The notes beneath the pieces are model-generated. The model worked only from the letters and a program-made list of their open reading frames with translations. It made no database searches and was not told the origin of the DNA. DNA of 38,233 bases from the NCBI GenBank assembly GCA_030528885.1, contig JAUMXY010000028.1, positions 1-38,233 of the forward strand, given 5' to 3'. This document shows, piece after piece, positions 37,002 through 37,970 of this stretch (the first letter of the stretch is position 1; each line of letters starts with the position of its first letter). The translations under genes and the position numbers were made by a program. This DNA is from Bacteroidales bacterium. Lineage in GTDB: Bacteria; Bacteroidota; Bacteroidia; Bacteroidales; Bacteroidaceae.

Positions 37002-37009
37002 TATCTTTG
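37002..37009 (+). promoter_or_regulatory. -7 box for the DUF3791-DUF3990 cassette
   Basis: TATCTTTG matches TAnnTTTG and ends 18 nt before the ATG at 37028, giving a leader of about 11 nt. It overlaps an alternative TTG start at 37007, which is therefore rejected. Confidence 0.6.
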
Positions 37010-37027
37010 CATCAAGCACAAAATCCT

Positions 37028-37252
37028 ATGGAAAGAAAAAAACAAGATATTGCCTACTTTCTTTCATTCTGTATTGAACAATACAAAAGCACAAAGAAGA
37101 TGAACGGAACAGAAGTCATGAAAACTTTTGTCCAATACGGTGTTCTTGACTATCTAAGCGAACACTTCGAAATCCTACATACTCAGAGCCACCAATGGAT
37201 ATTAGAAGATATTGACGAATTCATCAACATAAGGAAAAGAAAAGACGCATGA
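37028..37252 (+). CDS. DUF3791 domain protein, first gene of a three-gene cassette
   Basis: Seen: 74 residues from MERKKQDIAYFLSFCIEQYK. The pattern FCIEQYK....GTEVMKTFVQYGVLDYLSEHF (as one block, about 14-46), then ILHTQSHQWILEDIDEFI, is that of DUF3791. It is small, helical and soluble with no signal peptide. Its stop overlaps the DUF3990 start by ATGA (37249-37252). Known: DUF3791 genes are found next to DUF3990 genes in Bacteroidetes and Firmicutes, with no characterised function that I know. Inferred: an antitoxin, immunity protein or regulator of the DUF3990 protein. Confidence 0.82.
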   Translation: MERKKQDIAYFLSFCIEQYKSTKKMNGTEVMKTFVQYGVLDYLSEHFEILHTQSHQWILEDIDEFINIRKRKDA

Positions 37253-37734
37253 AGATCTACCATGGCAGCATCAACAAAGTAGAGACTCCAGAGATTCGCA
37301 AGCCGAACCGAACGCTGGACTACGGCAGCGGTTTCTACACAACCACTTCCTACGAACAAGCAGAAGCCTGGGTTCGAAGAAAGATGAGCGAGACAAAGAC
37401 TCCGAAAGGATTTGTCAACGTCTATGAGTTCAGCCCTGACGAGACAGGACAGCTGAACACGTTAGCATTTGAATCCCCAACAGCAGAATGGCTGGACTTC
37501 GTGATGAAGAACAGAACACAGAAAGGGTTTACACACCATTACGATATCGTCTACGGACCTGTTGCCAACGACAGAGTATATGCAGCATTCGCTCTCTACG
37601 AAGGCGGAGTTATTAGCAGAGAGATGCTCATCAACGAACTTAAAGCCTACAAGTTAGTTGACCAATATCTCTTTCACACACCTGAGTCCTTGCAACACCT
37701 CCGTTTTATAAAAGCAAAGGAGATTACACAATGA
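37249..37734 (+). CDS. DUF3990 domain protein, predicted ADP-ribosyltransferase-like effector
   Basis: Seen: 161 residues. It begins MKIYHGS (His5-Gly6-Ser7) and continues with LDYGSGFYTTTSYEQAEAW (Tyr30 in FYTT), like motifs I and II of H-Y-E type ADP-ribosyltransferases. A family block DIVYGPVANDRVYAAF lies at about 99-114, and the C-terminal DQYLFHTPESL (Gln139) may hold the third active-site position. Known: DUF3990 is a bacterial family of unknown function. Inferred: an intracellular NAD-dependent toxin or modifying enzyme, because it has no export signal and is translationally coupled on both sides to small proteins (ATGA overlaps at 37249-37252 and 37731-37734). The ART link rests on motif resemblance only. 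Confidence 0.82.
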   Translation: MKIYHGSINKVETPEIRKPNRTLDYGSGFYTTTSYEQAEAWVRRKMSETKTPKGFVNVYEFSPDETGQLNTLAFESPTAEWLDFVMKNRTQKGFTHHYDIVYGPVANDRVYAAFALYEGGVISREMLINELKAYKLVDQYLFHTPESLQHLRFIKAKEITQ

Positions 37735-37970
37735 GAGACCTTTCAATCAATCAGAACAACTTATACCTGCTGCTGCCCTCCAAACTAAGCTGGATGGCAT
37801 GCCAACTGGCAGAAGCCAAGAACATCAGCATCGCAGAAGCCATACAAAAGATTTATTCTTCAGAACTTTATCAGCGGCTCGAAATTGAAAGTACAAAGCT
37901 ATGGCATTGGGGACCACTTGCCTTATACGAAGAGTTGGAAGAGGAACAGGCTTTGGCATGCAATCGCTGA
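37731..37970 (+). CDS. Small protein of a DUF3990-linked family, third gene of the cassette
   Basis: Seen: 79 residues, helical, with ISIAEAIQKIYSSELYQRLE (about 32-51) followed by STKLWHWGPLALYEELEEE (about 54-72). This A...IY.S.LY..LE.E.TKLW...P..LY pattern is one I associate with small proteins next to DUF3990, but I cannot name a family with certainty. It overlaps the DUF3990 stop by ATGA. Inferred: a second antitoxin-like or accessory subunit. The acidic tail (EELEEEQ) would suit binding to a basic partner or site. Confidence 0.75.
   Translation: MRDLSINQNNLYLLLPSKLSWMACQLAEAKNISIAEAIQKIYSSELYQRLEIESTKLWHWGPLALYEELEEEQALACNR

What the first reader, a model, noticed from the sequence alone, without database searches (positions are those of the whole stretch)
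37002..37970. Translationally coupled DUF3791 - DUF3990 - third-protein cassette with an ADP-ribosyltransferase look
Seen: three small genes behind one -7 box, joined by two ATGA overlaps, in the order 74, 161 and 79 residues. The middle protein has YHGS at its start, GFYTTTSYEQAEAW after 25 residues and DQYLFHT near the end, which can be read as the H, Y and third-position motifs of ADP-ribosyltransferases. Established: small genes overlapping a soluble enzyme are common in toxin-antitoxin and phage-defence modules; I know of no functional study of this trio. Inference: an NAD-dependent toxin or modifier flanked by two regulators, one on each side. Having two distinct small partners is unusual for a type II toxin-antitoxin system.
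Basis: partly seen in the sequence, partly recalled or inferred. Interest (0 to 1): 0.78.

Follow-up and report, generated by a model that had tools for sequence, protein, structure and literature searches.

The report
Enzyme toxin with paired antitoxins
Three tightly linked small genes look like a bacterial toxin-antitoxin switch: an enzyme that probably attaches ADP-ribose to a cell target, held in check by two distantly related small proteins, one encoded on each side of it.

Summary
A (DUF3791, 74 aa), B (DUF3990, 161 aa) and C (79 aa) lie behind a Bacteroidales-type -7 box, joined by two ATGA overlaps. All three match PADLOC's candidate PDC-M13: the trio is catalogued, but my searches found no functional study. 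B is very probably an ADP-ribosyltransferase: in 207 intact relatives (201 distinct) H5 and Y30 are invariant and Q139 is Q in 206.
New here: C looks like a remote paralogue of A (hhalign probability 92%; score 34 against at most 14.2 in 100 controls). A and C are fused in relatives, including plasmid pBF9343, and gene order varies. Of 134 intact B genes in the family sample, 129 have both partners by profile and 3 more by weaker evidence; the two exceptions are a copy with another partner and a C-less copy whose Q139 is P. Conversely, B is broken or lost while A and C persist at 17 places, the signature of a toxin needing both partners.
Best reading: an ART toxin-antitoxin or defence module with a two-part DUF3791-type neutraliser. 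Toxicity, target and trigger are untested; the fold comparison could not be run.

The parts
37002..37009 (+). TATCTTTG, Bacteroidales-type -7 promoter element (TAnnTTTG)
   Evidence: sequence; motif within 70 nt upstream of A in 36 of 48 upstream regions, simple shuffles mean 2.6, max 8
37028..37252 (+). gene A, DUF3791 protein, 74 aa; proposed half of the neutraliser
   Evidence: PF12668 E 1.2e-19; PDC-M13A PDLC04433 E 8.2e-38
37249..37252 (+). ATGA overlap of A stop and B start
   Evidence: ATGA at this junction in 146 of 172 A-B-C places
37249..37734 (+). gene B, DUF3990 protein, 161 aa; proposed ADP-ribosyltransferase toxin
   Evidence: PF13151 E 1.1e-50; PDC-M13B PDLC04438 E 4.7e-63; AlphaFold2 pLDDT 91.2, pTM 0.85
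37261..37263 (+). codon of H5 (motif 1, strand 2-7)
   Evidence: H in 207 of 207 intact relatives
37336..37338 (+). codon of Y30 (motif 2, strand 28-32)
   Evidence: Y in 207 of 207
37663..37665 (+). codon of Q139 (motif 3, strand 138-142)
   Evidence: Q in 206 of 207; the exception L218 (P) is also the copy without C
37731..37734 (+). ATGA overlap of B stop and C start
   Evidence: ATGA at this junction in 122 of 172 A-B-C places
37731..37970 (+). gene C, 79 aa, no Pfam family; probable remote DUF3791 paralogue; proposed second half of the neutraliser
   Evidence: PDC-M13C PDLC04441 E 7e-31; profile similarity of its family to A's

Best explanation
A three-gene toxin-antitoxin (or abortive-infection) module. 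B is an NAD-using ADP-ribosyltransferase toxin with the triad H5-Y30-Q139. A and C are paralogous DUF3791-type proteins that act together as a two-part antitoxin, probably a heterodimer bound to B, made in step with B through ATGA coupling. When the pair is lost, degraded or pulled off (plasmid loss, phage infection), B is freed, ADP-ribosylates a cell target and stops growth. Shown by sequence: the triad, the overlaps, A-C fusions, near-obligate presence of both partners, and retention of A-C when B decays. Likely from profiles: the paralogy. Inferred: enzymatic activity, toxicity, complex formation, heterodimer, trigger and target.
For: Triad conservation; DUF3990 in the ART clan (passage). 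Confident B model with H5, Y30 and Q139 each in a strand. Partners: of 134 intact, non-edge B of the family sample (133 distinct) 129 have both by profile, 2 more a probable fused pair and 1 an A seen by eye. A-C similarity. Two fusion lineages in the B tree: [CA]-B (8 of the 9 tips of its clade, support 0.975) and the probable B-[AC] (2 of 2, support 1.0). HTH-DUF3791 fusion in the A position. B broken with A and C intact at 10 of 17 places with a non-intact B; B deleted or a remnant with both A and C present at 7 of 10 DUF3791 loci with no listed DUF3990 match. Found on 78 plasmid records, 29 typed conjugative, on pBF9343 beside a zeta toxin, inside an hsdM-hsdS operon and on viral contigs. 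DUF3990 is the C-terminal domain of a predicted Serratia Rhs effector (passage).
Against: No experiment; I found no enzyme activity or toxicity reported for this family. The fold comparison could not be run, so the ART fold rests on motifs, clan listing and strand order. The ART-PolyVal matches are weak (8 of 38 members, best E 0.0022, window 15.2 bits against a cut-off of 31.2), and families that are surely chance match up to 4 of the 38. Some B genes have one C-like partner only (L103, L106, L109) or another partner (PDC-M42B-like: L052, L125), so a two-part neutraliser is not universal. A-C similarity is remote: single-pass cross hits at E<0.01 are 5 of 176 and 3 of 176, and a first comparison with narrow alignments gave probability 11.8% in another register. 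The sets compared were chosen by position among ORFs that already matched profiles grown jointly from A and C, which may favour them. Many genomes are MAGs, so some broken B genes may be assembly errors. No HTH in the window's own A or C.
Confidence: 0.6

Rival explanations
1. ART toxin-antitoxin in which one partner alone neutralises B and the other is a sensor, chaperone or regulator, as in CmdTAC (CmdA antitoxin, CmdC sensor chaperone).
For: Three-gene ART precedent that senses phage capsid (PMC11618068 abstract and sections 6 and 12). Some relatives have one C-like partner only (L103, L106, L109). A carries an HTH in some relatives.
Against: A and C look like paralogues and are fused in eight loci, which suits one joint unit. 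Neither shows a chaperone family in Pfam that recurs among relatives. In the family sample intact B lacks both-partner coverage in only 2 of 134 places.
Confidence: 0.25
2. The module is mainly an addiction element of plasmids and mobile elements, with no role against phage.
For: 78 plasmid records including Bacteroides conjugative plasmids, on pBF9343 beside a zeta toxin. A-C pairs survive without B, as an anti-addiction function would.
Against: Up to 7 DUF3990 matches, fragments included, in one genome; placement inside or beside restriction-modification genes in two loci; PADLOC lists it as a defence candidate. This concerns benefit, not mechanism, and is compatible with the best explanation.
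Confidence: 0.3
3. B is not a toxin but a regulatory or metabolic ADP-ribosyltransferase, and A and C are activating subunits.
For: No toxicity test is known to me. Conserved co-occurrence alone would fit an enzyme with two subunits.
Against: B is lost or broken more often than its partners, whereas activating subunits should be lost with or before the enzyme. HTH fusion, plasmid carriage and alternative Xre-type partners suit a toxin.
Confidence: 0.1

Closest known systems
PDC-M13 (PADLOC-DB 2.0.0 phage-defence candidate)
   Same: All three proteins match its models. The A/B/C labels of the models fit two gene orders, DUF3791-DUF3990-C and DUF3990-C-DUF3791 (my reading).
   Different: The library gives a name only.
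PDC-M10 (PADLOC-DB)
   Same: Its A models match DUF3990; its B model matches the partner of L068 over its full length (E 2.9e-77), which gives a weak A-like and a weak C-like half, about 11 bits each, so it is probably the same system with the pair fused.
   Different: Listed as a separate system; domain order A-C, encoded downstream of DUF3990.
CmdTAC
   Same: Three genes, an ART toxin with the HY-[E,D,Q] triad, toxin-antitoxin logic (PMC11618068, sections 6 and 12).
   Different: CmdC is SecB-like and CmdA is a chaperone-dependent antitoxin; here the two partners are DUF3791-type proteins.
SpoIIS of Bacillus (SpoIISA with antitoxins SpoIISB and SpoIISC)
   Same: One toxin, two antitoxin proteins in one locus (passage of PMC4803016).
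   Different: There each antitoxin can antagonise the toxin and each gene has its own promoter; here one overlapping operon and apparently both partners are needed.
DarTG and RES-Xre (recalled)
   Same: ART-fold toxins in toxin-antitoxin pairs (recalled).
   Different: Neither a macrodomain nor a RES domain was matched by the window proteins.

Membership tests
ART superfamily, H-Y-[E/D/Q] group | H, Y and third-position (E/D/Q) catalytic residues | tested here: met
   H5 207/207, Y30 207/207, Q139 206/207
ART superfamily, H-Y-[E/D/Q] group | ART fold | tested here: inconclusive
   AlphaFold2 model pLDDT 91.2 with H5, Y30 and Q139 in strands 2-7, 28-32, 138-142; comparison with solved structures never ran; ART clan listing seen in PMC7955679
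ART superfamily, H-Y-[E/D/Q] group | NAD-dependent ADP-ribosyl transfer | not testable with these tools
   needs an enzyme assay
Type II toxin-antitoxin | toxin and small partner(s) in one tightly linked operon | tested here: met
   ATGA at A-B in 146 of 172 and at B-C in 122 of 172 places
Type II toxin-antitoxin | toxin toxic alone and neutralised by a protein partner | not testable with these tools
   only indirect: B lost or broken with A and C kept at 17 places; intact B without a partner pair in 2 of 134
Type II toxin-antitoxin | antitoxin binds DNA and autoregulates | tested here: inconclusive
   HTH-DUF3791 fusion in L058, similar long A proteins in L062, L063, L094; no HTH match in the window's A or C
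PDC-M13 | matches to the candidate's protein models | tested here: met
   E 8.2e-38, 4.7e-63, 7e-31
PDC-M10 | DUF3990 plus PDC-M10B partner | tested here: not met
   the window has two separate small genes and no PDC-M10B match; that partner was seen in L068 and, by resemblance, L066
CmdTAC / TAC systems | SecB-like chaperone gene | tested here: not met
   A is DUF3791, C matches no Pfam family; no SecB family among the matches at E<=0.1 of 43 C-type and 41 A-type relatives
DarTG | macrodomain antitoxin | tested here: not met
   no such match in A or C
RES-Xre | RES-domain toxin | tested here: not met
   B matches DUF3990, no RES

The most novel reading that the evidence does not exclude
An ADP-ribosyltransferase toxin locked by an obligate heterodimer of two ancient paralogous antitoxins encoded on opposite sides of it, so that loss or capture of either half releases the toxin: a two-key lock that could let one module sense two different signals. 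PDC-M13 and PDC-M10 would then be one system in split and fused form.
Probability: 0.42. Interest if true: 0.72.

Novelty: new variant of a known kind. Interest (0 to 1): 0.58.

Why it matters
PDC-M13 was counted 3324 times in rumen genomes (PMC13356809, passage) and DUF3990 is in 100 of 201 sampled genomes of the window's family, yet my searches found nothing on its mechanism. The present result turns a name into a testable design: a toxin, its probable active site, and a two-part antitoxin whose halves look related and can be fused. It also suggests that two separately listed defence candidates are one system, and gives natural fused neutralisers that should make biochemistry easier.

Tried and rejected
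A and C as unrelated partners: set aside after wider alignments. The first hhalign with narrow alignments gave 11.8% and another register; wider position-defined sets gave 92% local and 72% global, the tool's own run 88.7%. These sets were taken by position from ORFs that already matched the jointly grown profiles. Single-pass cross hits stay few (5 of 176, 3 of 176 at E<0.01), so the claim rests on profile comparison, on 8 of 43 C-type proteins matching DUF3791 (best 1.6e-5) and on the iterated searches, which collected both sides with 0 hits at E<0.01 among 11,358 ORFs away from B plus 3,949 reversed neighbours. Two of 3,548 other ORFs near B matched the A profile at E<0.01 and were not followed.

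Sequence searches of the solved structures with B, A and C gave only matches of E 0.14 or worse to unrelated proteins. NCBIfam and PHROGs gave nothing better than E 0.07.

The 86-aa protein after DUF3990 on pBF9343 was first taken for C; it is not among the C hits of my profiles and has no Pfam match at E<=0.001; C is fused to A there.

Chance explanation of the promoter: rejected, against simple base shuffles. Distance correlations A-B, A-C and B-C (Spearman 0.61-0.65; permutations at most 0.05) show co-inheritance only and are not used as evidence of contact.

Papers: PMC11618068 abstract and sections 6 and 12 read; passages only of PMC7955679, PMC4524185, PMC13356809 and PMC4803016; all others seen only as search listings. 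'No functional study found' rests on searches (DUF3990, DUF3791; PDC-M names), 107, 108, 125 and 134, in an open-access library without preprints.

Full report
What is there. The window carries three overlapping genes on the plus strand: A 37028-37252 (74 aa), B 37249-37734 (161 aa) and C 37731-37970 (79 aa), with ATGA overlaps at both junctions. TATCTTTG at 37002-37009 fits the Bacteroidales -7 element (name recalled); the motif is found within 70 nt upstream of A in 36 of 48 upstream regions, against a mean of 2.6 and a maximum of 8 in simple shuffles. A is DUF3791, B is DUF3990, C has no Pfam family. All three match PADLOC's phage-defence candidate PDC-M13, so the trio is catalogued. The paper library holds 5 papers naming either DUF and one naming PDC-M13. 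In the passages and listings I saw, none is a functional study of the trio.

How common. The window's genome has two trios (the second is L002). DUF3990 occurs in 100 of 201 genomes of the family at E<=0.001, 91 of them over the Pfam cut-off, and in 5 of 296 genomes drawn across the phylum, 3 over the cut-off. A scan of species genomes gave 53 loci, IMG/VR 9 loci, phage records 10 of 50,697 and plasmid records 78 of 72,556.

Conserved architecture. I examined 224 DUF3990 places after removing five duplicate loci; not all matches were fetched. Of the 207 with an intact B, 201 have distinct B sequences, and three B sequences occur both in the genome scan and in the family sample. In the family sample of 146 places, 124 are A-B-C with B intact and not at a contig edge. 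ATGA joins A to B in 146 and B to C in 122 of 172 A-B-C places overall. Other arrangements keep the same parts. In eight loci, among them pBF9343 and two other Bacteroides plasmids, A and C are one protein of about 150 aa, C half first, just upstream of B. In L066 and L068 a protein just downstream of B probably has the halves in the other order, though each half scores only 7-13 bits. In Moraxella the order is B-C-A, and the trio sits between hsdM and hsdS of a type I restriction operon; four viral-contig loci also have two partners behind B. In L058, L062, L063 and L094 the A protein has an extra N-terminal part of about 70-85 aa; in L058 Pfam calls it HTH_3, E 1.8e-11. On the B tree the [CA]-B form falls in one clade (8 of its 9 tips, support 0.975) and the probable B-[AC] in another (2 of 2, support 1.0), while HTH-A and B-C-A are scattered.

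A and C look like relatives. With 176 upstream and 176 downstream proteins, hhalign gives a local probability of 92% (score 34.2, 57 columns) and a full-length ungapped global alignment at 72%; 100 controls (99 column shuffles and one reversal) reach a score of at most 14.2. These proteins were sorted by position but had first been found with profiles grown from both sides, which may favour the result. The tool's own comparison of 41 and 43 diverse members gives 88.7%, P 2.5e-6. Pfam's DUF3791 model matches 41 of 41 A-type and 8 of 43 C-type members at E<=0.1 (best C-type 1.6e-5), while no other family matches more than two. RefSeq annotates both partners as DUF3791 in one plasmid locus. Profiles grown from either side collected both (392 and 394 hits), all beside B, and none in 11,358 ORFs away from B or in 3,949 reversed neighbours. 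Against this: an early comparison with narrow alignments failed (11.8%), and single-pass cross hits are few (5 and 3 of 176). I take homology as likely, not proven.

B looks like an active ADP-ribosyltransferase. DUF3990 is listed among Pfam's ART clan families (PMC7955679, passage). Eight of 38 members weakly match ART-PolyVal (best E 0.0022), but families that are surely chance match up to four, so this adds little. Across 207 intact proteins H5, D24, G26, Y30, W81, R89 and A106 are invariant and Q139 is Q in 206. The AlphaFold2 model is confident (pLDDT 91.2, pTM 0.85) and puts H5, Y30 and Q139 in strands 2-7, 28-32 and 138-142, the order expected of H-Y-[E/Q] enzymes (expectation recalled). 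The comparison with solved structures never ran because the machine was full (nine tries), so the fold is not independently confirmed.

Loss pattern. In the family sample 134 B genes (133 distinct) are intact and not at a contig edge. Two partner domains are found by profile in 129 (128, plus L139 with a neighbouring trio). L066 and L068 have the probable fused partner, and L220 an A seen by eye, making 132. The two exceptions are L125, which has a PDC-M42B-type partner instead, and L218, in which I saw no C and which is also the only one of 207 with Q139 replaced, by P. In the other direction, over all 224 places 17 have a non-intact B; at 10 of them both partners are intact, with ten different partner sets; the other seven are one contig edge, one different long protein, one unclear fragment, and four with one or no partner by that search. 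In 20 genomes searched for DUF3791 there are 56 matches, one of them at the place of a C gene. I fetched the ten with no DUF3990 match listed beside them, whose list is cut: three are A-C pairs with B gone (L231, L233, L236), four keep a B remnant between A and C (L232, L237, L238, L239), one is A alone (L234), one is a contig edge (L235) and one is decayed throughout (L240). MAG errors can break genes, but they should hit A and C about as often per base; of 403 partner ORFs examined 2 had a short domain match, though partners too broken to match the profiles would not be in that count.

Reading. The pattern is that of a toxin that is not kept without both A and C, with A and C able to outlive it. 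Together with the overlaps, likely paralogy and fusions, the simplest mechanism is that A and C form one neutralising unit on B, made as B is made. Release would follow loss of the module or removal of either half, for instance during phage infection. That B is toxic, that it uses NAD, what it modifies, and whether A and C bind as a pair are inferences. CmdTAC (PMC11618068) is the nearest worked example known to me of a three-gene ART module but uses a SecB-like chaperone; SpoIIS (PMC4803016 passage) shows one toxin with two antitoxins, but there either one works.

Relation to known candidates. PADLOC's PDC-M13 models fit both gene orders; PDC-M10B matches the downstream partner of L068 over its full length (E 2.9e-77), and that partner has weak A-like and C-like halves. 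PDC-M10 is therefore probably PDC-M13 with a fused neutraliser, and PDC-M42 the same enzyme family with another partner. DUF3990 proteins of a Geobacillus phage and a Priestia plasmid have one C-like partner only (L103 by eye, L109), which may be the simpler ancestral state; this was not tested.

Noticed in passing
L235:837-2750 (-): A 638-aa open frame with Cpf1/Cas12a REC1, REC2 and PI-like domain matches lies next to an HTH-like DUF3791 gene and the start of a DUF3990 gene at a contig edge.
   Followed up: partly
L105:3454-7203: Moraxella osloensis plasmid: the trio in order B-C-A sits inside a type I restriction-modification operon between hsdM and hsdS.
   Followed up: partly
L236:1785-4001: An A-C pair without B lies upstream of a frame with type I restriction R-subunit matches (HSDR_N, ResIII).
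   Followed up: no
L099:5502-6615: On pBF9343 the fused A-C gene and DUF3990 are followed by an uncharacterised 86-aa gene overlapping a zeta toxin gene, so two toxin modules may lie back to back.
   Followed up: no
L139:31-2322: Two trios in tandem, one of them with a split B gene.
   Followed up: no
L052:2674-3312, L125:2226-2687: A different DUF3990 partner (PDC-M42B-like), with an Xre-type HTH in L052; no HTH was sought by Pfam in L125.
   Followed up: partly
L232:1379-1501, L237:1761-1937: B remnants that keep the first residues and the conserved FQYAFCTQ end with the middle deleted, between A and C frames.
   Followed up: no
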